DNA of 50,971 nucleotides from contig DWUX01000007.1 of the NCBI GenBank assembly GCA_019120545.1, positions 1 to 50,971 on the forward strand, written 5' to 3'. The stretch is from Candidatus Blautia stercoripullorum. Lineage in GTDB: Bacteria; Bacillota; Clostridia; Lachnospirales; Lachnospiraceae. The notes under the pieces were generated by a model, which was given only the letters and a program-made list of their open reading frames with translations, ran no database searches and was not told where the DNA came from. The position numbers and the translations under genes were made by a program. Below are positions 771 through 21,834 of the stretch, one piece after another (position 1 is the first letter of the stretch; each line of letters opens with the position of its first letter).

Positions 771-2648
771 TTACAAAAGTCCTGCCGCTCCGATCATTCC
801 GGCGTCATTGCCAAGCACTGCCGCTTCAATCTCCGGCACATCTCCTTTTTCTCCGCCAAAGCATTCTTTTTTCACGATCTCGCGAAGGGGGGCAAGAAGG
901 GTCTCGCCCTGCCTGGAGATGCCGCCTCCCAGCAGCACAAGCTGGGGCCGGAAAATATTCACGATATTTACGATACCCAGACCCAGTCTGCGGATATAGG
1001 CATCCACAACTGTCTTCATCACGGCATCACCCTGTTCTGCCATTGCAAATATCTCTTCCGGCTCCAAATCCCTACCTGATGCGCGGCGTGCGTCTCGCTT
1101 TAAGGCAGTCGCGGAAGCATAGGCCTCCAGACATCCCCGCCTTCCGCAGGTGCAGGGTTCTCCGTTCTCCACAATAACCATATGTCCCAGCTCGCTGCCG
1201 CCGATTCCTCTTCCTTCATAGATTTCGCCGTCCAGAATAATCCCGCCGCCGACGCCGGTTCCCAGAGTCAGCATAACCACATCGCTGCAGTCCTTTCCCG
1301 CTCCCGCCACTGCTTCGCCAAGAGCCGCACAGTCCGCGTCATTTGCGATCTCCACCGGGATGGGAAGATATTTCCCGATTTCCTGTGCCAGAGGCACTTC
1401 TTCCCACCGGATGTTGTTGGAATAACGGACAACGCCATTCTTACGGTCCACAGTACCCGGGACGCCGATCCCCGCACCCACACACTGATCCATGGCGATT
1501 CCGTTCTTCTCCAGAAGAGCAAGCGCTGTCTCTCCGATGGTCCGGATCACTTCCTGGACCGGACGCTCTGCTGCCGTTGGGATACACACAGAGTCGATCA
1601 GCTTCTGGTGCACGTCCACAAGACCGATCTTCGTGTCCGTTCCTCCGATATCGATACCGATCCTGACAGGCGCCGCTTTCTCGCGGATCGTGGTGAGCAG
1701 AGCATCGCAGCTTCCTTCGATCACATAGGCGCCGCTCCCTGCCGGAAGGAACAGGCTGTCGCCTTTCTTATAGGATACCTGTGTGTCGTCATCTGAAGCT
1801 TCATCCTGCCCGCCGCAGGAAACAGTTCCCTCACCGTCAAGGATCAGGATACTGACAAAGGACTCTTCGGATACAAAGCCTTCCATCCTGCGCATCATCC
1901 GTCCGTCCAGATTCAGTTTGTCTACAGTGAAATAATCACAGTCCGCAACGTGGGGATAGCTGCTCTTGCTCTTGATCAGCGGGACCCGGTTGGTAACGGC
2001 AAGGGCTTTCTCGATATGGAGATCACGTTTTTTTCCGTCCTTTCCCACTCTTCCGTAATCATAGACACGGTAAGTCACATTGGAATTCTGTTGAATCTCT
2101 GCAATCAGGATGCCGGCTCCGATGGCATGGATCGTACCGGACTCAATGAAGAGGACGTCTCCCTTCTGCACTGGCACTGCATTAAGCACCTCCAGAAGTG
2201 TATCTTCCTGAATTCTTCTGGCAAATTCTTCCTTGCTGATCTCCGTCTTAAAACCATAGTAGAGAAACGCGTCTTTCTCGGCATCCATCACGTACCACAT
2301 CTCGGTTTTTCCGTACTGGCCCTCATTTTTCAGGGCATACCGGTTATCCGGATGGACCTGGATGGACAGATTCTGCTTTGCGTCGATAAATTTGATCAGA
2401 ATCGGAAAATCACGGAACCTTCTGCAGTTGGTTCCAAGGACTTCTTTTCCTGCCGCCTCTATGTACTGTTCCAGTGTCTTTCCGGCATACGGACCGTTTA
2501 CAATCGTAGAAGGACCGTCCGGATGACAGGACAGTTCCCATGTCTCAGCCAGCACGTCGCCGTCATATTCTTTCCCGTACTCATCCGCCAGCCGGCGGCC
2601 TCCCCAGAGATAGTCCTTACAGCTTGGTTTCAGTTTATAAACACTCAT
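771..2648 (-). CDS. Fused mannose-6-phosphate isomerase / ROK sugar kinase
   Basis: A 625-residue two-domain protein. Residues 1-325 are a type I (cupin) mannose-6-phosphate isomerase with likely zinc ligands H99 (QVHP), E116 (KTEMW) and H174 (GTIHA), converting mannose 6-phosphate to fructose 6-phosphate. Residues 328-625 are a ROK kinase with the phosphate loop DIGGTDTK (333-340), catalytic Asp in NDAD (about D437) and the ROK zinc site H489, C499, C501, C506 (CTCGRRGC). ROK members phosphorylate glucose, mannose or N-acyl hexosamines. Joining it to the isomerase suggests a mannokinase or broad hexokinase that hands mannose 6-phosphate to the next step. Both halves keep their active residues and lie in one frame. 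The start at 2648 follows GGAGAG and overlaps the GH113 stop by 4 bp. Sugar choice is inferred from context. Confidence 0.88.
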   Translation of the reverse strand: MSVYKLKPSCKDYLWGGRRLADEYGKEYDGDVLAETWELSCHPDGPSTIVNGPYAGKTLEQYIEAAGKEVLGTNCRRFRDFPILIKFIDAKQNLSIQVHPDNRYALKNEGQYGKTEMWYVMDAEKDAFLYYGFKTEISKEEFARRIQEDTLLEVLNAVPVQKGDVLFIESGTIHAIGAGILIAEIQQNSNVTYRVYDYGRVGKDGKKRDLHIEKALAVTNRVPLIKSKSSYPHVADCDYFTVDKLNLDGRMMRRMEGFVSEESFVSILILDGEGTVSCGGQDEASDDDTQVSYKKGDSLFLPAGSGAYVIEGSCDALLTTIREKAAPVRIGIDIGGTDTKIGLVDVHQKLIDSVCIPTAAERPVQEVIRTIGETALALLEKNGIAMDQCVGAGIGVPGTVDRKNGVVRYSNNIRWEEVPLAQEIGKYLPIPVEIANDADCAALGEAVAGAGKDCSDVVMLTLGTGVGGGIILDGEIYEGRGIGGSELGHMVIVENGEPCTCGRRGCLEAYASATALKRDARRASGRDLEPEEIFAMAEQGDAVMKTVVDAYIRRLGLGIVNIVNIFRPQLVLLGGGISRQGETLLAPLREIVKKECFGGEKGDVPEIEAAVLGNDAGMIGAAGLL

Positions 2649-3589
2649 AATCTCTCTCCTCTTTCAAAAAACTGCTTCACAACTGCTTCTGCAGGTTTCC
2701 CGTATATTTCATAATATCTGTGCCCCTTTGCCTCTTCTTCCGACCCAAGGCTTGGATTCCACGACCAGAGAACCGCGCCCCTTATCCACGGACGTTTTTC
2801 CATAGCATGGAATGCTTTTTTATACCATTCTTCCTGTTCAGAGAGACTGACATCCCCCTCGACTTCCCAATCATTGGGACGCAGGGATGAACCGACTGTG
2901 GACATACATCCCGTCTCCGCAAAGAAGAACGGCTTCTGGTATTTCTCCACAACATTCTCAATCCGGTCAAGCTGATTTTCCCAGTCATCCGCCGGATAAT
3001 AACCGCTGGATGAGATCACGTCCACACAGTCCCACCATTTCACATTATGCTCCTGATATTTATCGGTATTATAGCTGACCGGACCATGGTAGACTTTCCT
3101 GATGTCCCCGATCAGTTTTCTCCATTCCTGCTCCCTGTGTTCCGCCATCACCATCTCACATCCCGCGATGAACATCTCACAGTGCATTCTTTCCGCAATC
3201 TGCGCATAATGAAGCTGGAACTGGGTATAAGAGGCAAACCACTCTGACCATTTCGGTTCGCAGGGCACATCTTCATCGAAAAAGTTGATATGTGCCCGCC
3301 ACGTTCCGTTCAGGCAGTTTACAGTGGGTTTTATAAAAACTTTAAGTTCCAGACTTTTCGCATAACTGATAAATTCCATCAGTTCCCGGTCAGACATCGT
3401 ACGTTCCGTATCATAACGGATTTCCACCGACTGAGCGGTTTTCTGCACTCCTCCCGGGGCCAGAAGCACCGTATCCGCACCGGTCCTCTCTTTCATGGCG
3501 CGCAGGCTTTCTTTTGCTGTCTCCCGGGAAAGCACTCCGCGTTCTGCAAACGGAGCAAATGTGATCCCTCTGATGTACTCAAAATCCAT
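2645..3589 (-). CDS. GH113 beta-mannanase/exo-oligomannosidase
   Basis: A 314-residue (beta/alpha)8 glycoside hydrolase without a signal peptide, so intracellular. Likely catalytic acid/base is E145 in AGCEMVM and nucleophile E225 in FFAETGC, spaced as in GH113 enzymes. A tryptophan-rich C-terminal strand (GAVLWSWNP) fits clan GH-A. The GH113 of the Roseburia mannan locus releases mannose from the reducing end of manno-oligosaccharides, and the same role is likely here. The start at 3589 follows GGAGAACAGGAG. It overlaps the isomerase/kinase start by 4 bp, pointing to translational coupling with the enzyme that consumes free mannose. Family assignment is by overall pattern; endo versus exo action cannot be read from the sequence. 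Confidence 0.82.
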   Translation of the reverse strand: MDFEYIRGITFAPFAERGVLSRETAKESLRAMKERTGADTVLLAPGGVQKTAQSVEIRYDTERTMSDRELMEFISYAKSLELKVFIKPTVNCLNGTWRAHINFFDEDVPCEPKWSEWFASYTQFQLHYAQIAERMHCEMFIAGCEMVMAEHREQEWRKLIGDIRKVYHGPVSYNTDKYQEHNVKWWDCVDVISSSGYYPADDWENQLDRIENVVEKYQKPFFFAETGCMSTVGSSLRPNDWEVEGDVSLSEQEEWYKKAFHAMEKRPWIRGAVLWSWNPSLGSEEEAKGHRYYEIYGKPAEAVVKQFFERGERL

Positions 3590-6862: not shown

Positions 6863-7939
6863 TTATGCTGTGATGAGAGCCATCAGATAAAACGGCTCTG
6901 CGGTCTCATACTCGTCCGGAAGCACTTTGATTTCCACCGTATGTCTTCCGCTTTTTCCGTGGTGGAGCACCGGTTCCAGATACAGGCAGTCTCCCCAGTC
7001 TTCATCGAAATTTCCGTCCAGCAGCACAGGATGTTCCATGTCGCCGTCCAGGATCAGCTCCGCTTTTCTTGCAGGATGACGAATCGTCTTCCGGTACTGC
7101 GCCGCGATACAGGACGCCTGGATTTCAAATAAGATCCGGTCGCCTGACTTTTTCCCGAGCCATCCGTTCTTAAAGTGATCAAGATGTCCTTTCTTTTCTT
7201 CTGTATCAGCCCGGAATCCGTCAAGCTTCGGACAGCTCTCCCGGATTGTAAGTCTGCGGGCATTCTCATAGGTGTTGTCGGTCATTGCTGAGGGGACAGG
7301 CTGTTCCGACTCATCCTCCCACATGTGTTCTTTCACCTGTTCCAGATATGACGTGATCTCCGCCGCTACAAGCCCATGTCCCTTATCATTGGGGTGAAGC
7401 CCGTCAGGGGTGATCTCCTCTCTGGTAAACGCTCCGGCTTTCATCCTCAGCCACACCGTATCCTTTATACTCACATGGGGCAGATGATACCAGTCTCCCA
7501 CTCGATTGTGGTATTCCTGGGCATTTTTCCCTGTATCGTAAAATACATTGTTAAGAAGCAGGACTGCCGGGTTTGAACTCCATGTCAGCATCTTTCGGAT
7601 CAGTCCTTCATAGGTCTCCTGAAAAAATTCATTCGGATCGTCATTTACGGAAAAGTCCACCGCCACAAAATCCGGCTGATACATCAGCATATCCGTCACC
7701 ACGCGGGAAACTCCATAGTGAGAGGTGGTTCCGCCGATCCCACCGTTTACATAATGGAACGCAGCTTTCGGAAAGGTCTCTTCCCACCACCGGAACACTC
7801 TGTATGCATAACAATTCTCGTGCTTTGTGGCAAGGCTGTCCTGGGTAATAGAACCGCCGAAAAATCCGATTGTCAGTTCTACACCTGCCTCCGCCCGTCT
7901 CATACATGATTTCAGTCTGGTAAGATCTGGTCTGTTCAT
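6863..7939 (-). CDS. SGNH acetyl esterase, CE17-like
   Basis: A 358-residue SGNH hydrolase whose catalytic domain is N-terminal. Block I is GFFGGSITQD (Ser about residue 30), block III includes SVNDDPNE, and the Asp-His pair is in TPDGLHPNDKGH. About 150 further residues form a C-terminal beta-rich domain of the kind seen as a carbohydrate-binding module. SGNH first plus C-terminal module fits family CE17, whose Roseburia member removes acetyl groups from mannose in mannan. No signal peptide. I use the start at 7939 because GGCAGGAA precedes it and the mature fold begins soon after. It pairs with the CE2-like esterase next door; together they would strip acetylation from several positions. 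Esterase is sure, CE17 is inferred. Confidence 0.8.
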   Translation of the reverse strand: MNRPDLTRLKSCMRRAEAGVELTIGFFGGSITQDSLATKHENCYAYRVFRWWEETFPKAAFHYVNGGIGGTTSHYGVSRVVTDMLMYQPDFVAVDFSVNDDPNEFFQETYEGLIRKMLTWSSNPAVLLLNNVFYDTGKNAQEYHNRVGDWYHLPHVSIKDTVWLRMKAGAFTREEITPDGLHPNDKGHGLVAAEITSYLEQVKEHMWEDESEQPVPSAMTDNTYENARRLTIRESCPKLDGFRADTEEKKGHLDHFKNGWLGKKSGDRILFEIQASCIAAQYRKTIRHPARKAELILDGDMEHPVLLDGNFDEDWGDCLYLEPVLHHGKSGRHTVEIKVLPDEYETAEPFYLMALITA

Positions 7940-7958
7940 CTGTATTTCCTGCCTTTCT

Positions 7959-7984
7959 CCGGCGCCTTTGTCCTGAAGCGCCGG
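7959..7984. other. Intercistronic hairpin between the two esterases
   Basis: CCGGCGC pairs with GCGCCGG across a 12-base loop in the 59-bp gap. The minus-strand transcript has no T-run after it, so mRNA stability or translation control is likelier than termination. Confidence 0.4.
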
Positions 7985-7998
7985 TATTTTTCGATTTA

Positions 7999-9042
7999 TT
8001 ACCACTGGACATCCAGTTTCTCAATATATGCGCTCAGTTCTTCCGCCATCTCCTCAGCCTCGGGAATTCTCAGATGCCCCGGCGTTCCCCTTCCATTTCT
8101 GCGGAACACAAAATGACGGATCTTCTCATCCTGCAGCGAGCTGCACACTTCATTAATAGACTGATCCCATGACGGATCGTGCTCCAGCAGAGTGGTAATA
8201 CACACAATCCATGCATCCGGGTACTGACCGCGTATCTTTTTCAGCAGTTCCCCGTATCCTCTTCTCCAGCGCACGGCACGGTCACAGTTATAATCCTCTT
8301 TCATATAATCTTCCGGGTGATTGTCGTTCTGTCCGATGGCAACGATTACCACCTGAGGCGTATACTGTGTGAAATCCCAGTCTGTCGCCGGTCCGAATAC
8401 CGGATTGTAATGTATCTTGTTCCATGCAGTCTCCATTCCTATATAGTCCGGTTCGTTGAACCAGCCCGTACCGTCAAGAAGAGCAATGCCGCCCTGGGCT
8501 ATGTCATGGATTTCCGCACCCAGTTTCCGGGCTGTCATCCACGCGTAAGAATACCAGCTGTTGGAATACTGTCCGTTATGCTCTGGGTCCGGTTTTCCCA
8601 CATAATCCACAGCCTCCGACACCTCGCCTGCCGAAACCGAATCGCCGTACACTTCGATCCTGCGCCGGGATCTTTCCGGAGGAGCAAGGAACTCTGCTCC
8701 GTCTTCTATCTCAAATCCCAGAAATGCCACCTCATGACAGGAATCCTGCCGCTTAAACAGAAGCACCTCATGGGAACTGTCTTCTGTCGTCTGATTTACG
8801 GGGATTTCAATAACAGCTTCCCCATTATCCGGCAGGCGGAGCTTTGTCTGCTCCCCGTCCAGAATACAGCCGAGATAATTCTCCCAATATGCTTTTTTGT
8901 TTCTCACATATACTTTCAGCGTGTCGCCTGTAAAACGCATCCGCACCGACGTACAGGGGAATACGAACACAGGGGCAGTCCGATTCCTCCAGTCCACTCT
9001 TCCCGTATACTGCAGATACTTATGCTCTGGCATGATCAGCAT
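7999..9042 (-). CDS. SGNH acetyl esterase, CE2-like
   Basis: A 347-residue esterase with the CE2 layout: an N-terminal jelly-roll domain (about 1-125), then an SGNH domain starting EVYGDSVSAGE (Ser about 135), with AIGQND as the oxyanion block and a C-terminal His in PGHLRIPEAEE. CE2 enzymes deacetylate O-6 positions of mannose and glucose units. Cytosolic, as no signal is present. The start at 9042 follows AAAGGAGG; the longer ORF start at 9090 is inside the YesL gene. It overlaps the YesL stop by 23 bp, which suggests coupled translation. In the Roseburia mannan locus a CE2 and a CE17 enzyme occur together, as here. Confidence 0.82.
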   Translation of the reverse strand: MLIMPEHKYLQYTGRVDWRNRTAPVFVFPCTSVRMRFTGDTLKVYVRNKKAYWENYLGCILDGEQTKLRLPDNGEAVIEIPVNQTTEDSSHEVLLFKRQDSCHEVAFLGFEIEDGAEFLAPPERSRRRIEVYGDSVSAGEVSEAVDYVGKPDPEHNGQYSNSWYSYAWMTARKLGAEIHDIAQGGIALLDGTGWFNEPDYIGMETAWNKIHYNPVFGPATDWDFTQYTPQVVIVAIGQNDNHPEDYMKEDYNCDRAVRWRRGYGELLKKIRGQYPDAWIVCITTLLEHDPSWDQSINEVCSSLQDEKIRHFVFRRNGRGTPGHLRIPEAEEMAEELSAYIEKLDVQW

Positions 9043-9712
9043 TTTTTTCCTCCTTTTCTCCGAAAAGTCCGGAGTCATAGTCTTTTTCATTTTCCGCCGT
9101 TTCCTCAGAAATATATCTCTGGAAGATCTTATTCAAAAATATGGCATTGATTCTGGCTGTAAGTGAAAATCCAACGGCCACATAAACCGGCGTGGCAAGT
9201 GCCATCGTTACACTTCCAAAAACAATACAGACTGCCGGAATCATGTTCAATACCAGCATAATAATCGTAAAGGGAAAATGCCGGACTGCCATGTACCCGG
9301 CGTTCTTGAATATATTTTTTACCGTATTTTCAAATCGGGCCTGCACAGCGAATACATATGTAAACACCATTCCCCATATAAAAGTCAAAGCGCCTACCGC
9401 TATATTAAGAAGACTCCACATATTTTTCGCCACCATCAGATCAAAAGTCAGCAAAATGCCTGTGGCAAGCATGATCAGCCAGATTCCTGTGCTTTTCTTC
9501 CATTCTTCTTTCCATGCCGAGAAATATTCCTTTGCCACATAAACGCATTCTTTTCTCTCCATCCGCAGTGTTACCCGGTACATGGCAGAAAGAGACATTC
9601 CAATAGTCACTATCGGAATACTTGTTATAATAAACAGCACATTTAATATAAGGATATCTCCCACTCTGCCCATAAATCCGAAAAACGGATTATCAATCCC
9701 GAACCTTTTCAT
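9020..9712 (-). CDS. YesL family (DUF624) membrane protein
   Basis: A 230-residue integral membrane protein of the YesL/DUF624 family, with the typical N-terminal FFGFMGRVGDILILNVLFII and about five hydrophobic segments. The C-terminal tail is charged and cytosolic. YesL proteins sit beside carbohydrate ABC transporters and glycosidases in Firmicutes; their biochemical role is not established. The start at 9712 follows GGGAGATGAAAG; the ORF-track start adds 13 residues without a better ribosome site. Its 3' end overlaps the CE2-like gene. Confidence 0.8.
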   Translation of the reverse strand: MKRFGIDNPFFGFMGRVGDILILNVLFIITSIPIVTIGMSLSAMYRVTLRMERKECVYVAKEYFSAWKEEWKKSTGIWLIMLATGILLTFDLMVAKNMWSLLNIAVGALTFIWGMVFTYVFAVQARFENTVKNIFKNAGYMAVRHFPFTIIMLVLNMIPAVCIVFGSVTMALATPVYVAVGFSLTARINAIFLNKIFQRYISEETAENEKDYDSGLFGEKEEKNADHARA

Positions 9713-10513: not shown

Positions 10514-11695
10514 TTATTGATTATTCTCTGACTTCAGCAGTTCTAAGTTTTTATGGATCAGTTCACATCTCTGTTTTACGCAATCCGAAGACCTTAAAGG
10601 ATCTTTCGGCGTATGGAACAGATAATCTTCCATCTTATCGATAGTAGTTGTTGCCACATGCATCCTTGTATCACAGGATGCATAGTATATATAAATATCG
10701 CCATTTTCCTTTGCAATAGCCCCGTTTGTAAATACAACGTTGGAGACATCTCCTACCCTCTCAGAGCCAAGAGGCACAAGAAATACTCCAGAGGGCTCTG
10801 CGATCACCTGATCAGGATGTTCAAGATCCGTGCCGAATGCATAGAGTACATAGCGCAGTCCTGCTGCTGTATTTCGTACTCCGTGGGCAATATGGATCCA
10901 GCATTTGCTGCCCCGGATCGGTACGGCGCCCGCGCCGTTCTTTGATTCCGTCAAAGTATGATAAATACGTCTGCTGATAATCTTTTCTTCATCAATCACA
11001 GCATGCTCAATATCATCACACAGTCCGAATCCGATTCCTCCGCCTGACCCTGTTTCGATAAATCCATCCATAGGCCGGGTGTAAAAAGCATATTTCCCAT
11101 CTACAAATTCCGGATGAAGGGCTACGTTTCTCTGCTGGGGAGAACGAAGGGTCTTCAGATTATCCAGACGCTCCCAGGTTTTCAGATCCTTTGTACGAAC
11201 GATGCCTGCCGCCGCCACTGCTGCGGAAAGATCCGGGTTCTCCTGATCCTTGCTTTCGGAACAGAATACCCCATAAATCCATCCATCTTCATGTTTTGTA
11301 AGCCGCATATCGTAGACGTTAGTCTCCTCCGGGCAGGTATCCGGAAGTACTACCGGATAATCCCAAAAATGAAATCCGTCAATTCCGCTGTCGCTTTCTG
11401 CCACTGCAAAAAAGGACTTTCTGTCATTCCCTTCCACACGGACAACAAGATAATATTTCCCGTTCAGTTCTATGGCTCCTGAATTCATGACCGCATTAAT
11501 GCCCAGCCTCTCCATAAAATAGGGATTTGTCTCTTTATTCAGATCATATCTCCAGTGGACCGGAGCAAAATCTCTTGTCAGCACGGGAAACTCATATCTC
11601 TCATAAATTCCATTATAGAAATCCGTCTTGCGGTTTTTTCTTTCTATCAGACGGTCTACTTTTGCCTTTTCTACATAATACTGCTCATGTAACAT
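10514..11695 (-). CDS. GH130_1 beta-1,4-mannosylglucose phosphorylase
   Basis: A 393-residue five-bladed propeller phosphorylase of GH130 subfamily 1, judged by length and by the N-terminal extension before the first blade. The proton-donating Asp is D129 in NVYDMRLTK. The family splits mannosyl-beta-1,4-glucose with phosphate into mannose 1-phosphate and glucose. Its substrate would be made by the epimerase encoded just upstream, which turns mannobiose into mannosylglucose. The stop of the epimerase overlaps this start by 11 bp and CAGGAGG lies in front, so the two are probably co-translated. Cytosolic. Confidence 0.9.
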
Positions 11696-12878
11696 TCTCT
11701 GTCCTCCTGATAACTTCCATACACATCCTTCCGTTGTGATACGGGCATTTCCATGGCTCTACCACAGGCTTGTCAAGAGGATTTCCTTCCTGATCCACTG
11801 CCCAGAACCACTCAGATCCGGCTCTGTGATCTACTATTTTTTCCTTGATATATTTCCATATATCTTCTGCCGCCTCCAGATATTCCCTGTGTTCCGGGGA
11901 TCTCTGCCATCCGTTTAGAAATCCTACTACAGCTTCCGCCTGAACCCACCAGACCCTTGTGGTATCTACCATTCCATTTTCTGCTTCATTTACAAGAGAA
12001 TGGCCGATATACGCACGTTCATAAATATTCTTTGTGATCTCTTTTGTGATCGGGCTCAGCCGCTCCTTATATACCGGATCTCCCAGAATATCCAGCCCCC
12101 GGTCTACCAGCCATGCCGTCTCAATATCATGGCCATAAGAATACAGGTCAATAAGACTGTTCCATTTTCTGTCAAAAAACACTTCCTGCCTTCCCAGATC
12201 ACGGTTATAGATTTTCTTCTCCACCAGATCCAGCATAAATTTTATCTTTTCTTCCACTTCCGGAGCTTTTGTCACCCGGTAAAATTCTGTATAGGCTTCA
12301 AAAACATGAAGCAGCGTATTCATCGTTTTTTCTGCCATAACCCCGTTTTCTGAAAGTTTGTCATTATCTTCCGGCTCAAACCGGATATTAAAAGCTTCCA
12401 GATATCCATATTCATCCCTGCATCTGGTCTCGATCAGGTGATACAGATCCCAGGCCAGTTCCAACGCTTCCCTGTCTCCCGACGCATCATAATAAGAAGA
12501 CAGGGCATACATAGCAAAAGCCTGATTATAAGTATGCTTGGTTGTATCTTCTGGTTTTCCATCATAGGAAAGGGACCAGTAGACACCCCCGTTTTCACGG
12601 TCCACACACCTGTCTTTTAAAAAGTTCCACCCATGTTCTGCTTCTTGGAGAAGACTTTTCTCCCCCAGAAGCAGATACGCATTGGAAAAGAACCACAGGA
12701 TCCGGCTGTTCAGGATACAGCCTTTTACCGCCTTCTTGTCCAGTACCAGATCATAGCCAAGCCATCCGTAATACCCGCCGTACTCCTCATCCCTCAGACT
12801 TTTCCAAAAGGGAATGATCCTCTCTGTCAGATGTTTTTTTACATCATCTGCAAATGTTCTGATGTCCTGCATAATCAT
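11685..12878 (-). CDS. Cellobiose/mannobiose 2-epimerase (AGE family)
   Basis: A 397-residue (alpha/alpha)6-barrel epimerase of the N-acylglucosamine 2-epimerase superfamily, cellobiose 2-epimerase branch. Visible landmarks are [43 protein letters not shown] and the C-terminal [15 protein letters not shown], which carry the conserved His and Trp residues. It epimerises the reducing-end sugar of beta-1,4-mannobiose to glucose, giving mannosylglucose for the GH130_1 enzyme. Its start overlaps the GH130_2 stop by 4 bp (ATGA). An in-frame Met two codons later is an alternative start. Confidence 0.9.
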
Positions 12879-13900
12879 CGTCTTCCTATCTCTGAATCAC
12901 TTTCTCTCACCACAGAATGCTCTTTAATATAAGAAACCACCTCATCTGCTGTAGTAAAGGCAAGTCCCACATAAGAGTCTGCTGCGCCATAGTAAATGGC
13001 AATCCTTCCGGTAGCTCCGTCATGGATCGTAGCACATGGGAAAGTTACATTTGGTACAAAACCTCTTTCCTCATACCATTTCTCAGGTGTAAGCAGAAAG
13101 TTTTCACAGCGGTATTTCACTACAGAAGGATTGTCAATATCCAGGATAGCGCCTCCGATACTGTATACATAGCCATTGCATGTACCTGTTACACCATGAT
13201 AGAAAAGAAGCCAGCCTTCACTTGTCTCAATAGGAGCAGCTCCTCCCCCGATTTTTACAGACTCCCACCATTCCGGGCTTTTTCCCATAACATGGCGGTG
13301 TTTTCCCCAGTAGACCATATCCGGACTTTCGGAAAGGAAAATATCACCAAAAGGTGTGTGGCCGCTGTCACTTGGTCTTGAAAGAAGTACAAAATTTCCG
13401 TTTATTTTTCTTGGAAACAGTACCGCATTTCTGTTAAATGGGAGAAAAGGATTTTCAATTCTTGTAAATGTCTTAAAGTCCGTCGTCTTCGCCATGCCGA
13501 TAGACGCACCGTAGAAATCCTGGCACCACATGATATAATACACGCCTTCTACTTCCACAAGTCTGGGATCATACGCATATACAGGCATAAAATCTCTGCC
13601 TTCTTCGTCTTTAAAAGGAATCTTGTCTTTTTCAAAATCCCAGTGGATACCGTCATTACTTCTCCCAAGATATATATAGGGAATCCCATTAATCTGCTCT
13701 CCTCTGAAAACTCCGATAAATCCATCCTCATAGGGAATTACCGCACTGTTGAAAATGCGGGCTACGCCTTCTACAGGATTCCGTCCGATTACCGGGTTTT
13801 CACTGTACCTCCACAGGGGCATCCATGTCTTTGCATCTGCAGGACGATCCTGCCAGGGCATATTGGGTACACTCCCTCCGATAATTTTCACATTGCTCAT
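12875..13900 (-). CDS. GH130_2 beta-1,4-mannooligosaccharide phosphorylase
   Basis: A 341-residue GH130 phosphorylase of the shorter subfamily 2 type. The likely catalytic Asp is D111 in AYDPRLVEV. Subfamily 2 acts on manno-oligosaccharides of two or more units, removing the non-reducing mannose as mannose 1-phosphate with phosphate. It would work on imported, deacetylated chains before the epimerase and GH130_1 handle the last disaccharide. CGGAGG precedes the ATG at 13900, and the gene follows the MalG-type permease by 30 bp. Cytosolic, no signal. Confidence 0.9.
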   Translation of the reverse strand: MSNVKIIGGSVPNMPWQDRPADAKTWMPLWRYSENPVIGRNPVEGVARIFNSAVIPYEDGFIGVFRGEQINGIPYIYLGRSNDGIHWDFEKDKIPFKDEEGRDFMPVYAYDPRLVEVEGVYYIMWCQDFYGASIGMAKTTDFKTFTRIENPFLPFNRNAVLFPRKINGNFVLLSRPSDSGHTPFGDIFLSESPDMVYWGKHRHVMGKSPEWWESVKIGGGAAPIETSEGWLLFYHGVTGTCNGYVYSIGGAILDIDNPSVVKYRCENFLLTPEKWYEERGFVPNVTFPCATIHDGATGRIAIYYGAADSYVGLAFTTADEVVSYIKEHSVVRESDSEIGRR

Positions 13901-13930: not shown

Positions 13931-14773
13931 CTAGCCTTTTACTGCTCCTGCTGCCATTCCTCCGTACACCTGTTTCTGGAAGATCAGGAAGAGGATAAAG
14001 ATAGGGATAATGGTGATCAGTACGCCGGCGCAGATATAGTTGTACTGATTTCCATAAGGTCCTGTAAACGCATACAGGGCCGTAGATATAGTTCTCAATT
14101 CCTTTGTCTGCAGATACAGATTGGACATATAGTACTCGTTATACACGCTTACTCCTTTTAATACCAATGATGTCACAATAGCAGGTTTCAGAAGAGGAAA
14201 CAGAATTTTGAAAAATACGCCGAAATATGTACATCCATCCATGATCGCCGATTCATCAAGAGATACCGGAAGATTCTCGAAAAACTGCAGGAAAATATAG
14301 ATGGAAATAATATCCGTCCCCATCAGCACGATCATATATCCATATAAATGGTTGATGAATCCTAAAGAATACATGATCTGATAAACCGTTACCTGTGTAG
14401 CGATTCCCGGGATCAGAGACGCAAACATAAACAGGTTCTGGATTACCCCATTGCCCGGGAACTTAAACCGGTTCAGCACATAGGCCAGCATAGCGCTGAT
14501 AAAAATAGAGCAGGTAAGAACCACCACAAGAATGATCGCTGTATTAGCAAATCCCCGAAGCATATTTGCCTGTTTAAACGCTATGGAAAAATTTTCAAAC
14601 ATCCACTGGGTAGGCAGATCTAGAACCGATGTAGTATTATATTCTTCCGTCGTTTTGAACGCAGTGAATACACACACTATAACCGGAAGCAGAGAAATAA
14701 CCGCAGCGCCAACAAGCATTACATATTTAAACAAAGTAAAAAAGATAGTTCCGATTTTTATCTGCCGTTTCAT
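13931..14773 (-). CDS. ABC sugar permease, MalG type
   Basis: A 280-residue inner-membrane subunit of a carbohydrate importer (CUT1 class, BPD_transp_1). About six membrane helices are visible, with the coupling motif region ESAIMDGCTYFGVFFKILFP (EAA-like loop) at about residues 193-212 that docks to an ATPase. It partners the MalF-type subunit, overlapping it by 4 bp. The substrate is inferred to be beta-mannooligosaccharides from the neighbouring genes. No ATPase gene is present in the locus, so an MsmK-like shared ATPase encoded elsewhere must be assumed. Confidence 0.9.
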   Translation of the reverse strand: MKRQIKIGTIFFTLFKYVMLVGAAVISLLPVIVCVFTAFKTTEEYNTTSVLDLPTQWMFENFSIAFKQANMLRGFANTAIILVVVLTCSIFISAMLAYVLNRFKFPGNGVIQNLFMFASLIPGIATQVTVYQIMYSLGFINHLYGYMIVLMGTDIISIYIFLQFFENLPVSLDESAIMDGCTYFGVFFKILFPLLKPAIVTSLVLKGVSVYNEYYMSNLYLQTKELRTISTALYAFTGPYGNQYNYICAGVLITIIPIFILFLIFQKQVYGGMAAGAVKG

Positions 14774-15795
14774 GCTGTCTGTCCTCCCTTCCCATTCTGG
14801 GCCATTTTCTTTGCCGCTTTTTCCGCTCTTTTTCTCTTTCGTACTGCTGCCTTGGACTCATCGGAAGTTCCATCGTCAAAGGCATATTTAAAGAACAGTT
14901 TCTGGGCCACTGTACAGATAATTATGATCGCCAGCAGCACAATAGCCATGGCACAGGCCAGCCCTACCTTCTGATTTTCATGGGCAATACGGTTCATGAT
15001 AACAAAATAAGTGCCGGTTCCCATTGTACCGTTTGTAATAACATATGGAGGTTCAAACGCACTGAGAGAACCGCTGATGGAAAGGATCAGATTCAGGACC
15101 ACAATAGATTTAATGCTGGGAAGGATGATATAACGGAACTGATGCCATTTATTTGCACCGTCCAGTGATGCAGCCTCATAAAGGTCAGAATCTACGGACA
15201 TCATTGCTCCCAAAAACAGAATCATATTCTGTCCTGTGTATCTCCACACAGAGGTAGCCGCAAGAGCGATATTATTAATCTTTTGATCTTGAAGCCACAT
15301 AGGAATATCTTCAAGATCCATTCCCAGCAGCTGAAGCAGAGAATCAAGGACAAAACCTCTTGCATAGAAAAATTTAAAAATAAATCCTACGGCGATACCG
15401 CAGATCAGATAAGGAAAGAACATTGCGCCTTTAAAAAAGCTGGCACCCTTTACTTTAAAGACCATAAGAGACGCGAAGAACAGTGCCAGCGCAAGCTGTA
15501 CAACCGCTCCGCCCATGTAGTAAAGGCTGACAAATAAAGAGCCAAAAATATCATCTCTTTGGAATACGTCTATGTAATTTTTAAGACCTACAAAGGTTCT
15601 TTCCCCGATATATTTCATATCGTAGAAACTGAACTGCACCATTTTTATAAAAGGCACATAAGTAAAAACAACCAAAAGGAGCAAAGGAATAAACATGAAC
15701 AGAACGATCACCAGAATTCTCTGTCCTTCTCTCCTTTTCATCAGCCCTGTCAATCCACCTTTTTTCTTGGGAACTGCAGCTTCCTGTTTACTCAT
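14770..15795 (-). CDS. ABC sugar permease, MalF type
   Basis: A 341-residue inner-membrane subunit of the CUT1-class importer. I take the start at 15795 (MSKQEAAVPKKKGG) because AGAGAGGAGA lies upstream; the ORF-track start adds 39 residues that overlap the binding-protein gene. The EAA-like loop YEAASLDGANKWHQFRYIIL is present, as are about six membrane helices. The C-terminal tail is very basic. It forms a heterodimer with the MalG-type protein. A GC hairpin between the binding-protein gene and this gene would make permease levels lower than binding-protein levels, as usual for such operons. Confidence 0.9.
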   Translation of the reverse strand: MSKQEAAVPKKKGGLTGLMKRREGQRILVIVLFMFIPLLLLVVFTYVPFIKMVQFSFYDMKYIGERTFVGLKNYIDVFQRDDIFGSLFVSLYYMGGAVVQLALALFFASLMVFKVKGASFFKGAMFFPYLICGIAVGFIFKFFYARGFVLDSLLQLLGMDLEDIPMWLQDQKINNIALAATSVWRYTGQNMILFLGAMMSVDSDLYEAASLDGANKWHQFRYIILPSIKSIVVLNLILSISGSLSAFEPPYVITNGTMGTGTYFVIMNRIAHENQKVGLACAMAIVLLAIIIICTVAQKLFFKYAFDDGTSDESKAAVRKRKRAEKAAKKMAQNGKGGQTA

Positions 15796-15822
15796 AATAT
15801 TCTCCTCTCTTGACTGAGAAAA

Positions 15823-15840
15823 GGCGGCCGTAAGACCGCC
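15823..15840 (-). terminator. Attenuating hairpin between binding-protein and permease genes
   Basis: On the minus strand GGCGGTC-TTAC-GGCCGCC is followed by TTTTC. Its position in the 59-bp gap fits a partial terminator that sets a high binding-protein to permease ratio. Confidence 0.55.
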
Positions 15841-15854
15841 CTTCCCTGTACGTC

Positions 15855-17240
15855 TTACATGTTGACGTCCACACCTAACGCTTCCTGGGCAGCAGACCAC
15901 TGAGCGTTCCACTCGTCAATTACTTCGTCTAAGGTTTTACTTCCATACAGAGCACACTCCAGCAGATAGCAGTTAGGATAATCGTCATTGTTGATTCCTA
16001 CTTCACTTTGATTATTCACATCATTAAATAATGTTTCCTCACCTTTCACTGGAGGATTGTCAGACAGAAGTTCTACACCTTCAAAATCAGCCAGTGCATC
16101 TGGAAGATCTTCTCCTTTAAGAGCCGGGATACTTCCCTCGTCTTCATATATAGAAGAATCTTCGATAAGCCATTTCAGATAAACCATTGCTGCGATCTGG
16201 TTGTCGCTGCTTGACTGATTGTTAATACCAAATGAATAGTTTCCGCCTGCTCCTGCATACTGTTTTCCGTCTACTGTAATAGGGAATGGCATATATCCTA
16301 CATCTTCCGGTGTGTCTCCCGCGTCTTTACACTGCTGTACCGCCCAGGAGCCAAGTACCATCGTGGCGATCTCTCCATTATTGATTCTGGCCTTAGAAGA
16401 TTCCCAGTCGCTGCTGGCTGGATCCTCTTCAACAAGTTTTCTTGCAACAGACTCATAGCAGGTATAATAAACTGCGTAAGGACCTGTCATATCATCTCTT
16501 TTTGCAAAAGGATCTTTCATATGCACAATGTCATGGTTCATAAAGTCCGGATTTCCTGTTGCCGCAATACCAATATAGGCATCCCATGCTCCCATAGGCC
16601 ATCCTGCTGAAAAATTGGTATACAGAGGAATAGCATCTGTATTATCTTTAATGATCTGGAGATCATCTAAAAACTCATCCGGGGTCTTAGGCAATTCTGT
16701 AATTCCCGCATCTGCCCAAACTTTCTTGTTATACACTACTCCGTTGGCTGTACCGCCGTTGGCGATTCCATAAACTGTTCCGTCATAGGTTTTCTCGGAA
16801 ACGAAATTGTAAACAGGATCAAGGGTATCGTAGTCTCCCAAAGGAGTAAAGTAATCACTCAGTTCACTTTTATCCACACCTGTAGGGATAAAGCAAAGAT
16901 CGCCCCAGTCTCCGGTGGTCAGACGCAGTGTCAAAGATTCTTCATAATCTGTAACAGCTTCATACTCTACCTTAATGTTAGGATACAGCTCCATAAACTG
17001 ATCTGCGTATCCTGCATACACAGTATCTACAATATCTGTTCTGTTTGTCAGCACTTTAATAGATGCCTTGATGTCCTGATAATCCTCTCCGACTGTGATC
17101 TGGTCGATTGTAGGAATAGCTTCTCCGCTGGAAGAGCTTCCTTTGTCGCCTCCTCCGCCGTTGCCGCAGGCTGTCAGTGAAAATACCATCGCTGATGCCA
17201 GAGCCATTGATACTCCACGTTTTAAAGTTTGTTTTTTCAT
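15855..17240 (-). CDS. Sugar-binding lipoprotein of the mannooligosaccharide importer
   Basis: A 461-residue family 1 extracellular solute-binding protein. The signal peptide ends in the lipobox SLTAC (lipidated Cys 25), followed by a Gly/Ser linker, so it is anchored outside the membrane. Many aromatic residues (for example GSWAVQQC, SFGINNQ) fit a sugar-binding cleft. It hands oligosaccharides to the two permeases encoded downstream. The predicted ligand is beta-mannooligosaccharide or galactomanno-oligosaccharide, by analogy with the Roseburia mannan-binding protein. It is the first gene of its operon, with AGGAGG before the ATG and a good promoter just upstream. Confidence 0.9.
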   Translation of the reverse strand: MKKQTLKRGVSMALASAMVFSLTACGNGGGGDKGSSSSGEAIPTIDQITVGEDYQDIKASIKVLTNRTDIVDTVYAGYADQFMELYPNIKVEYEAVTDYEESLTLRLTTGDWGDLCFIPTGVDKSELSDYFTPLGDYDTLDPVYNFVSEKTYDGTVYGIANGGTANGVVYNKKVWADAGITELPKTPDEFLDDLQIIKDNTDAIPLYTNFSAGWPMGAWDAYIGIAATGNPDFMNHDIVHMKDPFAKRDDMTGPYAVYYTCYESVARKLVEEDPASSDWESSKARINNGEIATMVLGSWAVQQCKDAGDTPEDVGYMPFPITVDGKQYAGAGGNYSFGINNQSSSDNQIAAMVYLKWLIEDSSIYEDEGSIPALKGEDLPDALADFEGVELLSDNPPVKGEETLFNDVNNQSEVGINNDDYPNCYLLECALYGSKTLDEVIDEWNAQWSAAQEALGVDVNM

Positions 17241-17580: not shown

Positions 17581-18588
17581 TTACTTCCAGATCCTCAAAT
17601 CTTTTACGCTTTGTCTTTCTATAATCCTGCTGTCCACATATCTTGTGCCGCAGTATTTCTCTTTTCCCCGTATCTTGTCTCTCAAAATTTTCACAGCCTG
17701 TCTGGCCATTTCCTTCATATCTACATTATAGGTGGTCAGCATATCAGCAAAAGCATTTCCATACAGATAATTATCATATCCCACGATAGAAATGTCCTCG
17801 GGAACCCTATATCCTCGTTTTGTCAATTCATCGTACAGCATTCCCGCAGACCAGTCGCTGTTACAGACAAATGCCGAAGGCATATTTTCAGGGACCTCTA
17901 CTTTGCTCATTCCTACCAAAAGATCACGGTCTTCCAGGATCCATTCTTTTCTTTCCCGGATGCCCGCCTCTATCAAAGCCTTTCTGTATCCGTAATAACG
18001 ATCCAGAATATTTTCATTTGCCCGGATTGATCCAAAAAAAGCTATACCTCTGTGTCCCCTTTCCAAAAGATATCGGGTCATTTTATACATTCCCACATAG
18101 TTATTAGACATTACGGCATCGCATTTCATATTCTTCAGCTGGAAATCCAGAAGGACAATAGGGACTTCCGCCCTTTTCACAATTTTCTCCACATAAGACC
18201 GGGACATCCAGCCAATGATAACAAGGCCGGCAATAACCTTTTCCTGCATCAATTTGGGAAGCTCTTCTTTTTCTTCCATAGCAAAAGTCAGGATTTCCAG
18301 CATGGTGACATTCTGGTTTTTGGCAGCTTCGTATGCCACATTCTGATACATTGCCCAGTAAAAAGAATTTCCCACTGTAATGTATTTTTCTGAAGCTATA
18401 ACGCCTATAACATTTGCCGGATCTTTTTTATTATGTTTTTTATTATCATATCCCATTTCCCTGGCCGTCTGTTCCACCAGTTTTCTTACATCTTCACTGA
18501 CTCCCTTTTTTCCGGAAAGCGCATTGGAAACTGTAACAACACTGACTCCCACCTCTGCGGCAATATCTTTCATTTTAATATCTGCCAT
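17581..18588 (-). CDS. LacI-family transcriptional regulator (first of tandem pair)
   Basis: A 335-residue LacI-type repressor. The N-terminal helix-turn-helix reads MKDIAAEVGVSVVTVSNALS (about 6-25), followed by GKKGVSEDVRK and a sugar-binding periplasmic-protein-like domain from about residue 60. It is 1 bp downstream of its paralogue and forms the end of the GH36 operon. It likely senses a mannooligosaccharide or galactoside and controls the importer and/or GH36 promoters. The hinge lacks the usual Leu-containing intercalating stretch, as in several clostridial members. Confidence 0.88.
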   Translation of the reverse strand: MADIKMKDIAAEVGVSVVTVSNALSGKKGVSEDVRKLVEQTAREMGYDNKKHNKKDPANVIGVIASEKYITVGNSFYWAMYQNVAYEAAKNQNVTMLEILTFAMEEKEELPKLMQEKVIAGLVIIGWMSRSYVEKIVKRAEVPIVLLDFQLKNMKCDAVMSNNYVGMYKMTRYLLERGHRGIAFFGSIRANENILDRYYGYRKALIEAGIRERKEWILEDRDLLVGMSKVEVPENMPSAFVCNSDWSAGMLYDELTKRGYRVPEDISIVGYDNYLYGNAFADMLTTYNVDMKEMARQAVKILRDKIRGKEKYCGTRYVDSRIIERQSVKDLRIWK

Positions 18589-18589
18589 T

Positions 18590-19612
18590 CTAAAGGTCTC
18601 CTTTCCGTCTCACCGTATTTCCCAGCACAATGCTGCCCCCTACGATTCTCACTCCTGAAGGCTTTTTTCTCCCTTCAATCCTCTTTAAAATAGTGTTTAC
18701 ACTGATCTGAGCAATGGCTTTTTCATCATTTTCGTAGGTCGTCAGCTTTAAAGGCGTAAGATTTCTGGTATTATAATTGTCAAATCCAACTACAGAAACA
18801 TCTTCCGGCACATGGATCTCTCGTTTTTTCAGCTTTTGCAGCAGAATCTCGGCAGTCTTATCACAGTTGCACACAAATGCCTCCGGTAGTTTATCCGGCA
18901 GTTCAAACTGGATACGATAATCTCCATTACTGAAATCCCGGTCCGGCAGAATGTTGTTCTGTGCCTCTTCCTCCCCTGCCAGCTCCAGGGCTTTGCAATA
19001 TCCCAGATACCTGTCGGTGATGTTTTTAGTCCCGTCCGGAGTCCCTACAAACATTAAATCCGAAAACCCCTGATCCAGCAAAAACCTGGTCATCTGTTCC
19101 ATGCCGCCGAACCCGTCTGTAATGATATAATCCATGTCTTCATAGACATCATAATAATCCACACACACTACAGGTATATCATAGGTGCTTCGTATAGCTT
19201 GAATATATAATTCGTTCAGTTCCCCGATCAGAATCAACCCCGCTGTTTTCTGTTCCAGGAACGGTTCAAAAGGCTTTTCCAATGCCTCTTTTTCAGCGGT
19301 GACAACTTCCAGGACTGTAAGATGTCCTTTTTTTACCGCTTCTGCAGCTATTCTTTTATATATATCCATATAAAAAGAGGGAAATTCTTTTACATATTTT
19401 TCAGCTACTGCCACTCCGATGATATAAGATTTCTCTTCCTTTTTTTCTCTTACCACACTGCGGTATCCCATTTTTTCCGCAGTATCTGCAATTTTCTTTC
19501 TGAGACTGTCGCTGACTCCTTTTTTTCCTTTCAGCGCATTGGATACTGTAACGATACTGACTCCCAGCGCCTCTGCAATATCCTCCATTTTCACACTCTT
19601 TTTCTGACCCAT
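18590..19612 (-). CDS. LacI-family transcriptional regulator (second of tandem pair)
   Basis: A 340-residue LacI-type regulator with helix-turn-helix MEDIAEALGVSIVTVSNALK (about 9-28) and a C-terminal effector domain (GFDNYNTRNLTPLKLTTYEN). Its recognition helix is nearly identical to that of the adjacent paralogue, so both may bind the same operators with different effectors, or form heterodimers. It lies 38 bp after the GH36 stop. Effector and targets are inferred from position only. Confidence 0.88.
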   Translation of the reverse strand: MGQKKSVKMEDIAEALGVSIVTVSNALKGKKGVSDSLRKKIADTAEKMGYRSVVREKKEEKSYIIGVAVAEKYVKEFPSFYMDIYKRIAAEAVKKGHLTVLEVVTAEKEALEKPFEPFLEQKTAGLILIGELNELYIQAIRSTYDIPVVCVDYYDVYEDMDYIITDGFGGMEQMTRFLLDQGFSDLMFVGTPDGTKNITDRYLGYCKALELAGEEEAQNNILPDRDFSNGDYRIQFELPDKLPEAFVCNCDKTAEILLQKLKKREIHVPEDVSVVGFDNYNTRNLTPLKLTTYENDEKAIAQISVNTILKRIEGRKKPSGVRIVGGSIVLGNTVRRKGDL

Positions 19613-19650
19613 GATCCACCTCTTTTCTTAAATCTGTATCTATCCGGCCT

Positions 19651-21834
19651 TTACTGACACATACTGATCTCTATAGTCCTGCTGCGAAAATCTCCCATTT
19701 CCGGCGTGATTCTAAGGCCTGCCTGCATCAAAGTCCTGCCGGAATACTCTTTTCCATCAACCTGATATCTTTTGTCCGGATCCAGCCCTGCGAGCCTTAA
19801 AAATCTGCTCTTCACATTTGCCCTGGACAGTACCTGTACATAAAACAGCAGGGCTTTGGATTTATCCTTTTCTACGATCATCCAACTATCATAGTATCTG
19901 TTTTCAGCCGCAGATGCAAGACGATAATAATCTCCTTCTCTGATCAGGTCATTATATTTATGATATTTTTCCACCTGAACCTTCACCAGGGTTTTCTCTT
20001 CCTCAGTCAGCTTGGTGATGTCCAGTTCATATCCGAATGTTCCAAGCAGGGCTACGTCTCCTCTTGTTTCAAAAGGCGTTACCCGTCCTACGGAATGATT
20101 CGGACATACGCTTACATGAGCTCCCATGGCAGATACCGGGTAGACCAGAGCTGTCCCTTCCTGGATCGCAAGACGTTCTATAGCATCTGTGTCATCCGAG
20201 CACCAGATCTGAGGGCTGTAGTACAACATTCCCGGATCAAACCTGGCTCCGCCGCCGGAGCAGTTTTCCAGAAGAATATCTGGGAAATCTCTGATCAGCC
20301 GTTCCTGCATCCTGTAAACTCCCAGCACATACCGATGGTACAGCTCTCCTTGACGGTCTGCCGGAAGAGCGCTGCTTCCCATGGTCGCCAGCTGCCTGTT
20401 CATATCCCATTTCACATAAGAAATATCCGCGCTTCTCAGTACTTCTGCGATCATCTCATAGACCCCGTCCACGACTTCCTGTCTGGAAAAATCCAGTACA
20501 TACTGAGCCCGGCTTTGTGTAGTTTCTCTTCCCGGAATCTGAATCGCCCAGTCCGGATGCTTTCTGTACAGCTCAGATTCCGGCGAGATCATTTCCGGTT
20601 CTACCCAGATTCCGAACTTCATCCCCAGTTTTTTAACATTTTCCACCAGGTTGTTCAAACCGCCCTTAATCTTCTCTTCATTGACAAACCAGTCTCCCAG
20701 AGAACTGTCGTCCAGATTCCGCTTTCCAAACCATCCGTCATCCATGACCAGCATCTCAATTCCCAGTTCAGAGGCCTCTTTTGCGATCTCAAGCAGTTTT
20801 TTCTCATCAAAATCAAAATATGTAGCCTCCCAGTTGTTGATGAGAATAGGACGTTTTTTGTGAAGATAAGGGCTTCTGATCAGATGCTGTCTGTACAGAT
20901 CATGGTAGGTCCTGGTCATCTTCCCAAGGCCCTGATCTGAATATACCATCACCACTTCCGGAGCAGTAAAATGTTCTCCCGGCTCCAGCTTCCAGGTAAA
21001 GCCCTCCGGATGGATCCCCATGGTCATTCTCACAGAATCAAACTGGCTTTTTTCCGCCTGGGCAATGAAATTTCCGGAATATACGAAGTTCATCCCGTAG
21101 ACTTCTCCAGTCTCCTGGGTGGTTCCTGGCGTCACCAGAGCCATAAATGGATGCTCCTGATGACTGGACTCCCCTTTTAAAGAGGCAATGTTCTGCCTTC
21201 CGTAGCCCAGAGGCATTCTCTGAATATGACGTTCTCGTGCCCAGGATCCAAAAAGTCCCAGCACCTGGAAATTCCGGTCGTCCATATCCAGGCAGGCAGA
21301 AAGTACTTTTTCAAGATAAACGCTTTCCTTCCCCTGGTTTTCAACAAAAACTGAACGGATGACCGCATCTGAATCTTCCATTACAGAATAGAGAAGGGTC
21401 GCTTTTATTCCCAGAAGCCTGTCCAGGCAGAAAATCTTCAGTGTTGCACATTCCTCTTTCTTTCCCCACACAGAAGGAAGCCCTTCCAATGCCGGTTTTC
21501 CTTCCATGATCTCATATCCTGTGTAAACCAGTTCACTGGCTCTGTGCCCATCCTGGCTTCTGACACAAAATGCACTTTCGCGATAATCGCCCATACCTGT
21601 CTCCGGGTATTCAAAAGCCGCACAGTCCAGAAAAGCCCCTTTCTCCCGCAGATTCACAGATGGCACTAAAGGAGCCTCATCTTCACGAAGAAGATAGCGC
21701 AGATCCCTTTCATCCAGATATTTTCCATAATACATATGAGCCACATATTTTCCATCTACAATAGCAATACCATAAGTAGTACTGTTGGTGTGGATTAAAA
21801 ATACTTTTTTTTCTTCATCAAATATGATTTTCAT
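19651..21834 (-). CDS. GH36 alpha-galactosidase
   Basis: A 727-residue family 36 alpha-galactosidase of the full-length type: N-terminal beta-sandwich (about 1-320), catalytic barrel (about 325-640) and C-terminal beta domain. Landmarks are MDDGWFGKR, GIWVEPEMISP, the nucleophile D477 in KWDMNR, LLENCSGGGARFDP and the acid/base Asp in CSDDTD (547/548). It has no signal peptide, so it trims galactose from imported galactomanno-oligosaccharides; raffinose-type sugars are an alternative. AGGAG lies before the start at 21834. It heads an operon with the two LacI genes. Confidence 0.93.
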   Translation of the reverse strand: MKIIFDEEKKVFLIHTNSTTYGIAIVDGKYVAHMYYGKYLDERDLRYLLREDEAPLVPSVNLREKGAFLDCAAFEYPETGMGDYRESAFCVRSQDGHRASELVYTGYEIMEGKPALEGLPSVWGKKEECATLKIFCLDRLLGIKATLLYSVMEDSDAVIRSVFVENQGKESVYLEKVLSACLDMDDRNFQVLGLFGSWARERHIQRMPLGYGRQNIASLKGESSHQEHPFMALVTPGTTQETGEVYGMNFVYSGNFIAQAEKSQFDSVRMTMGIHPEGFTWKLEPGEHFTAPEVVMVYSDQGLGKMTRTYHDLYRQHLIRSPYLHKKRPILINNWEATYFDFDEKKLLEIAKEASELGIEMLVMDDGWFGKRNLDDSSLGDWFVNEEKIKGGLNNLVENVKKLGMKFGIWVEPEMISPESELYRKHPDWAIQIPGRETTQSRAQYVLDFSRQEVVDGVYEMIAEVLRSADISYVKWDMNRQLATMGSSALPADRQGELYHRYVLGVYRMQERLIRDFPDILLENCSGGGARFDPGMLYYSPQIWCSDDTDAIERLAIQEGTALVYPVSAMGAHVSVCPNHSVGRVTPFETRGDVALLGTFGYELDITKLTEEEKTLVKVQVEKYHKYNDLIREGDYYRLASAAENRYYDSWMIVEKDKSKALLFYVQVLSRANVKSRFLRLAGLDPDKRYQVDGKEYSGRTLMQAGLRITPEMGDFRSRTIEISMCQ

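What the first reader, a model, noticed from the sequence alone, without database searches (positions are those of the whole stretch)
771..2648. Mannose-6-phosphate isomerase fused to a ROK sugar kinase
Both halves keep their catalytic and zinc residues. The fusion joins two successive steps (mannose to mannose 6-phosphate to fructose 6-phosphate) and is placed with enzymes that release free mannose.
Basis: partly seen in the sequence, partly recalled or inferred. Interest (0 to 1): 0.6.

Follow-up and report, generated by a model that had tools for sequence, protein, structure and literature searches.

The report
Isomerase fused to a sugar-kinase domain
[quoted passage not shown] the fusion occurs in many related species, and in about half of them the kinase half has lost its ATP site but kept its sugar pocket, as if it became a sugar sensor.

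Summary
In detail: one uninterrupted 625-codon ORF (minus strand, 771-2648) holds a type I phosphomannose isomerase (PMI, aa 1-322) and a ROK sugar kinase (aa ~329-625), with all expected zinc, sugar and ATP motifs. It is not an artefact: full-length PMI-ROK fusions occur in 80 other genome-collection loci (64-97% identical), nearly all Lachnospiraceae or gut/rumen MAGs, with a nearly invariant junction. The gene ends a beta-mannan operon and is the only PMI in the genome; a separate true glucokinase exists. I also found an inverted fusion (ROK-PMI, Subdoligranulum), a probably independent PMI-ROK fusion (Exiguobacterium, in a PTS/GH1 cluster) and tandem PMI/ROK genes. The unexpected part: only 43 of 85 fused ROK domains keep both key aspartates (phosphate-1 Asp333, catalytic base Asp437), against 66 of 67 stand-alone relatives; the sugar pocket is kept in 84 of 85 and the zinc motif in 83. 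The decayed domains are under purifying selection (median dN/dS 0.075). The window copy is intact. I read it as isomerase plus active hexokinase here, in a family where the ROK half is kept mainly for sugar binding. Substrate, activity and regulation are untested.

The parts
771..2648 (-). PMI-ROK fusion gene, 625 aa (stop codon at 771-773)
1683..2648 (-). type I phosphomannose isomerase domain, aa 1-322
   Evidence: Pfam PF20511/PF21621 and PDB 1qwr match; AF2 model matches 1qwr, TMt 0.86
1665..1682 (-). junction aa 323-328; spacing between aligned domain ends is 3-4 residues in nearly all clostridial fusions
774..1664 (-). ROK sugar-kinase domain, aa 329-625
   Evidence: Pfam PF00480 248.9 bits; AF2 model matches glucokinase 2qm1, TMt 0.86
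1638..1652 (-). phosphate-1 (ATP) motif DIGGT aa 333-337: intact here, lost in many fused relatives
1338..1343 (-). N436-D437, sugar contact and catalytic base: intact here
   Evidence: equivalence to GNE N516/D517 from PMC2742894
1125..1193 (-). ExGH...CTCGRRGCLE sugar/zinc motif aa 486-508, almost invariant in the whole fused family
2645..3589 (-). GH113 beta-mannan hydrolase, 4-nt overlap with the fusion gene
   Evidence: Pfam GH113 438 bits
3636..5060 (-). separate GH1 glycosidase (in Roseburia a GH1 domain is itself fused to PMI)
   Evidence: PMC6385246, PMC9784577
5068..6792 (-). phosphogluco/phosphomannomutase
   Evidence: Pfam PGM_PMM I-IV
6863..9090 (-). two esterase genes (GDSL and CE2)
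10514..13900 (-). GH130 family protein, epimerase (GlcNAc 2-epimerase family, presumed mannobiose epimerase), GH130 phosphorylase
13931..17240 (-). ABC importer: two permeases and solute-binding protein
17581..21834 (-). two LacI regulators and a GH36 alpha-galactosidase

Best explanation
A single polypeptide carries phosphomannose isomerase (mannose 6-phosphate to fructose 6-phosphate) and a ROK hexokinase-type domain, made as the last product of a beta-mannan utilisation operon. In this species every ATP, sugar and zinc residue of the ROK half is intact, so it most likely still phosphorylates a free hexose set loose in the pathway (mannose from GH113/GH1, glucose from mannosyl-glucose phosphorolysis, or both). 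The isomerase half takes the resulting mannose 6-phosphate plus that made by the mutase from mannose 1-phosphate. Across the family the sugar pocket is held while the ATP site is lost again and again, so the ROK half probably also serves as a hexose-binding module that adjusts the isomerase. Shown: fusion, residues, operon, sole PMI, separate glucokinase, ATP-site decay under purifying selection. Inferred: kinase activity, its sugar, and any regulation of PMI.
For: Single in-frame ORF with both domains; AF2 model of both domains confident, pLDDT 88.8, best PDB matches PMI 1qwr and glucokinase 2qm1. Mannan operon around it; among relatives that could be scored the fusion lies beside mannan genes in 44 and elsewhere in 21. 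It is the only PMI in the genome; a separate ROK at C9 passes the glucokinase cut-off (311.6 against 260.35) while the fused one does not (218.2), and in the tree the C9 gene pairs with 2qm1, apart from the fused ROKs. In Roseburia and Faecalibacterium work mannose phosphorylation is assigned only to 'a hexokinase'. Inverse fusion L154, Exiguobacterium fusion L153 and tandem genes support a real functional link. ATP-site loss against pocket conservation: 43/85 fused keep D333 and D437 against 66/67 stand-alone; sugar set 84/85, zinc set 83/85; at least 14 changes on the PMI tree; dN/dS of decayed ROK halves 0.075; two HTH ROK proteins of the same genome show the same kind of ATP-motif loss with the zinc motif kept.
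Against: No activity, ligand or regulation was measured. Kinase dispensability in relatives weakens the claim that kinase activity is important here. The fused ROK does not reach any curated specificity cut-off, so the substrate is open. A rumen clade carries the fusion outside mannan operons, among varied housekeeping genes. The counts are not independent of phylogeny and many branches of the tree are weak.
Confidence: 0.5

Rival explanations
1. Dedicated mannose kinase plus PMI: two consecutive steps on one chain, perhaps with channelling.
For: Intact motifs; mannan operon; a separate glucokinase exists, so glucose phosphorylation is covered elsewhere; free mannose has no assigned kinase in the Roseburia and Faecalibacterium models.
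Against: ROK kinases are often promiscuous (general knowledge); no specificity model passes its cut-off; loss of kinase residues in about half the family. Channelling has no support here.
Confidence: 0.3
2. The ROK half is a glucokinase serving the other product of the pathway: GH130_1 releases glucose from mannosyl-glucose while the PMI half handles the mannose-1-phosphate branch, so the fusion couples two parallel branches rather than consecutive steps.
For: Best NCBIfam match is ROK glucokinase, though below cut-off; best PDB kinase matches are glucokinases; the locus holds two GH130 enzymes and an epimerase-type gene, whose Roseburia counterparts yield glucose and mannose 1-phosphate.
Against: The genome has a separate ROK glucokinase over the curated cut-off; the fusion also occurs outside mannan loci.
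Confidence: 0.2
3. The ROK half is a pure sensor or scaffold in the whole family, including the window, with intact motifs being only slow to decay.
For: Repeated loss of the ATP site with conserved sugar/zinc half and purifying selection; same signature in HTH ROK proteins.
Against: The window clade keeps the complete ATP site and its ROK half is under similarly strong constraint.
Confidence: 0.2
4. Artefact: two genes joined by sequencing or assembly error.
For: Stand-alone PMIs end exactly at the junction in some relatives.
Against: More than 80 independent assemblies including isolates carry the same in-frame junction; low dN/dS across both halves.
Confidence: 0.01

Closest known systems
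GH1-PMI fusion of Roseburia and the GH1 'isomerase' of Faecalibacterium mannan loci (PMC6385246, PMC9784577, PMC8262883)
   Same: PMI encoded within a beta-mannan locus with GH130, epimerase, mutase, esterases; PMI fused to another domain
   Different: Partner is an N-terminal GH1 domain there (inactive on tested substrates in R. intestinalis); here the partner is a C-terminal ROK domain and GH1 is a separate gene
B. subtilis gmu operon: GmuE (annotated fructokinase) and GmuF (PMI) (PMC11669640)
   Same: Sugar kinase and PMI encoded together in a glucomannan operon
   Different: Separate proteins and PTS uptake; here one polypeptide, ABC uptake and phosphorylases
GNE, UDP-GlcNAc 2-epimerase/ManNAc kinase (PMC2742894)
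   Same: Sugar-converting enzyme fused N-terminally to a ROK kinase; same sugar and zinc motif residues
   Different: Different partner enzyme and sugars; GNE keeps an active kinase, whereas many PMI-ROK fusions have lost the ATP site
ROK transcription repressors (for example Mlc, NagC, Lmo0178)
   Same: ROK fold with sugar/zinc half kept and kinase motif lost, as in the decayed fusions
   Different: They carry a DNA-binding HTH; the fusions carry PMI instead and no HTH
Guanylyltransferase-like N-terminus + PMI protein of about 780 aa (L164)
   Same: Type I PMI fused to another sugar enzyme in the same bacterial order
   Different: Partner and presumably pathway (GDP-mannose synthesis) differ

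Membership tests
Type I phosphomannose isomerase | Pfam catalytic and cupin domains over curated cut-offs; manA NCBIfam model | tested here: met
   PF20511 58 bits, PF21621 38.7 bits; TIGR00218 154 against 116.2
Type I phosphomannose isomerase | Zinc ligands Q, H, E, H | tested here: met
   Q97, H99, E116, H174; 86-87 of 87 fused homologues keep them
Type I phosphomannose isomerase | Isomerase activity | not testable with these tools
   needs enzyme assay
ROK family | PF00480 domain with HC3 zinc motif GHx9-11CxCGx2G(C/H)xE | tested here: met
   248.9 bits; GHMVIVENGEPCTCGRRGCLE; motif definition from PMC2742894
Active ROK sugar kinase | DxGxT ATP motif and catalytic Asp in the window copy | tested here: met
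   D333-T337, D437, T464 all present; activity itself not testable
Active ROK sugar kinase | Same residues conserved across the fused family | tested here: not met
   D333 and D437 both kept in 43/85 only; 66/67 in stand-alone relatives
ROK glucokinase (TIGR00744) | Score over curated cut-off 260.35 | tested here: not met
   218.2 for the fusion; the separate C9 gene scores 311.6
Fructokinase, N-acetylmannosamine kinase, allose kinase, NagK | Score over curated cut-off | tested here: not met
   all below cut-off
Beta-mannan utilisation locus of the Roseburia/Faecalibacterium kind | ABC importer, two GH130, epimerase, mutase, CE2, GH36, GH113, PMI | tested here: met
   reference gene lists; no secreted mannanase was seen among the ORFs annotated
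GH1-PMI bifunctional protein | GH1 domain fused to PMI | tested here: not met
   GH1 is a separate ORF 3636-5060

The most novel reading that the evidence does not exclude
The ROK domain fused to PMI is a recurrently arising pseudokinase that works as a built-in hexose sensor, tuning the isomerase: a third use of the ROK fold besides kinase and DNA-binding repressor. The window protein would be an ancestral-like form with both kinase activity and sensing.
Probability: 0.35. Interest if true: 0.7.

Novelty: new variant of a known kind. Interest (0 to 1): 0.5.

Why it matters
It names a candidate for the unassigned hexokinase step in gut mannan catabolism. It also offers a natural series (stand-alone kinase, intact fusion, fusion with a lost ATP site, stump, stand-alone isomerase) in which one can ask directly whether a sugar kinase fold can become an allosteric sensor for a metabolic enzyme. 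It also warns that PMI-ROK proteins should not be annotated as kinases by domain match alone. I found no mention of the fusion in the open full-text library searched, which does not cover most subscription journals.

Tried and rejected
Artefact of frameshift or assembly: rejected. The ~780-aa PMI frames of relatives, which I first took for GH1-PMI, are guanylyltransferase-like + PMI in the one case read (L164). A claim that the fusion is confined to mannan loci: rejected, a rumen clade has it elsewhere. A single origin for all PMI/ROK fusions: rejected for L154 (inverse order) and unlikely for L153 (at most 38% identity to other ROKs in the set, no zinc cysteines); for the second family f17 (L007/L008) it stays open, since its PMI half groups with stand-alone PMIs at support 87. 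The distance between the two active sites could not be measured because model coordinates are not exposed. Viral collections were not searched as irrelevant.

Full report
Observation. Window 771-2648 (minus) is one ORF of 625 codons beginning with ATG, overlapping the preceding GH113 gene by four bases. Pfam finds the type I PMI catalytic and cupin domains in aa 4-317 and ROK in 330-624, all above curated cut-offs. The nearest solved structures are B. subtilis PMI (1qwr) for the first half and E. faecalis glucokinase (2qm1) for the second. An AlphaFold2 model from 50 fused sequences has pLDDT 88.8, and Foldseek returns the same two structures, TM-score 0.86 on the target in each case. All zinc, sugar and ATP motif residues that I checked are present.

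Surroundings. Upstream lie GH113, GH1, phosphogluco/phosphomannomutase, two esterases (GDSL, CE2), two GH130-family proteins, an epimerase-family enzyme, an ABC importer, two LacI regulators and a GH36 alpha-galactosidase. This is close to the gene set reported for beta-mannan loci of Roseburia and Faecalibacterium (PMC6385246, PMC8262883, PMC9784577). [quoted passage not shown] In Roseburia the PMI is fused to a GH1 domain; here GH1 is separate and PMI is fused to ROK.

Own genome. The fused gene holds the only PMI. Five ROK matches exist. One, at C9, passes the ROK glucokinase cut-off (311.6 against 260.35) and groups with 2qm1 in the tree (support 96), apart from the fused ROK, whose score for the same model is 218.2. 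Two further ones carry N-terminal extensions that look like the HTH of ROK repressors.

Distribution. A scan of 84,980 species genomes, keyed on two PMI peptides and therefore blind to the state of the ROK half, gave 471 confirmed relatives; the best 80 all cover essentially the full fusion at 64-97% identity, from Blautia, Mediterraneibacter, Faecalicatena, Schaedlerella, Dorea, Limivivens and rumen MAGs. In these fusions the aligned domain ends are 3-4 residues apart except in a few with an insert (L103, L104, L106, L141). In an order-wide and a family-wide sample most genomes have PMI and ROK separately. Of the relatives scored, 44 lie beside mannan genes and 21 elsewhere; 9 more sit on stretches too short to tell. 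A gmu-like PTS operon with its own ScrK-type ROK carries the fusion in L064 and similarly L069.

Other fusions. Subdoligranulum plasmid record OY725846.1 encodes the inverse order, ROK then PMI, in one 644-aa ORF. Exiguobacterium plasmids carry a distant PMI-ROK (597 aa), next to GntR, GH1 and cellobiose-type PTS genes, with zinc cysteines missing. PMI and ROK are adjacent separate genes in L010, L012, L156 and L165. Roseburia has GH1-PMI (literature), and L164 shows a guanylyltransferase-like + PMI protein. PMI is thus repeatedly joined to other sugar enzymes, and more than once to ROK.

Decay of the ATP site. In 85 distinct fused ROK domains only 43 keep both D333 (phosphate-1) and D437 (catalytic base), and 35 keep the whole six-residue ATP set; among 67 stand-alone ROKs at least 35% identical to the window domain 66 do in each case (Fisher p 1.6e-12, not corrected for relatedness). 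Of 53 columns conserved in at least 95% of stand-alone ROKs, the ones most often changed in the fusions include I339, G576, N614, D333, T464, T337 and G336, which I read as mostly the nucleotide-binding loops, while N436, E486, E508, G465, G467 and the zinc cysteines stay at 98-100%. In GNE the equivalent sugar residues are N516, D517, E566, H569, E588 and the ATP motif is DxGxT (PMC2742894). On the PMI tree at least 14 changes separate kept from lost; many branches are weak, so this is a rough floor. Decayed ROK halves are not drifting: pairwise dN/dS median 0.075, against 0.099 for intact ones and 0.034-0.044 for PMI. AlphaFold2 predicts a confident full-length model, with closely similar secondary structure, for a decayed member, L111 (pLDDT 90.8). 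The strain record QXWR01000039 (L099), named as a strain rather than a MAG, is among the decayed ones, so this is not only MAG error. ROK loss goes further in L009, whose PMI ends in VRIGIDII and a stop, a stump of the ROK start, and in L139. Two ROK proteins with repressor-like N-termini in the window's own genome have the same pattern, degenerate ATP motif with ExGH and CxCGxxGC kept.

Mechanism. For the window copy I commit to PMI plus probably active ROK hexokinase acting on mannose and/or glucose; kinase activity and substrate are inferred. For the family I infer a sugar-binding role that outlives kinase activity, most simply ligand-dependent control of PMI; a structural role such as dimerisation would not by itself demand invariant sugar contacts. 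Channelling is unsupported either way.

Limits. Controls were chosen by similarity to the window's ROK half, and proteins with long N-terminal extensions were left out, which removes repressors by design. Fused sequences are not independent of each other. No coordinates of the models were available for measuring distances. The paper library is open-access only.

Noticed in passing
L009 (G254), L139 (G546): PMI followed by a ROK stump (VRIGIDII and stop) and by a shrunken ROK remnant: fusions apparently being dismantled in relatives.
   Followed up: partly
L154 5896-7830: Inverse-order ROK-PMI fusion on a Subdoligranulum variabile plasmid record (OY725846.1).
   Followed up: partly
L153 5983-7776: Distant PMI-ROK fusion on Exiguobacterium plasmids beside a PTS/GH1 cluster; its ROK half lacks the zinc cysteines but keeps both catalytic aspartates.
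   Followed up: partly
L164 1501-3837: Protein of 778 aa with guanylyltransferase-like N-terminus and PMI C-terminus; frames of similar length with a PMI match recur in many order members.
   Followed up: no
L103, L104, L106, L141: Fusions of 695 aa with an insert of roughly 45-65 residues between PMI and ROK.
   Followed up: no
window 9764-10396: 210-aa protein without a Pfam or NCBIfam match, conserved in mannan loci of relatives (35-85% identity), next to a DUF624 protein.
   Followed up: no
window 32444-48756: Molybdenum-enzyme cluster: ABC transporter parts, MoCF-domain protein, radical SAM protein, xanthine dehydrogenase-like 915-aa protein.
   Followed up: no
window 23774-24592: FolB-FolK (dihydroneopterin aldolase/HPPK) fusion next to a pterin-binding enzyme.
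   Followed up: no
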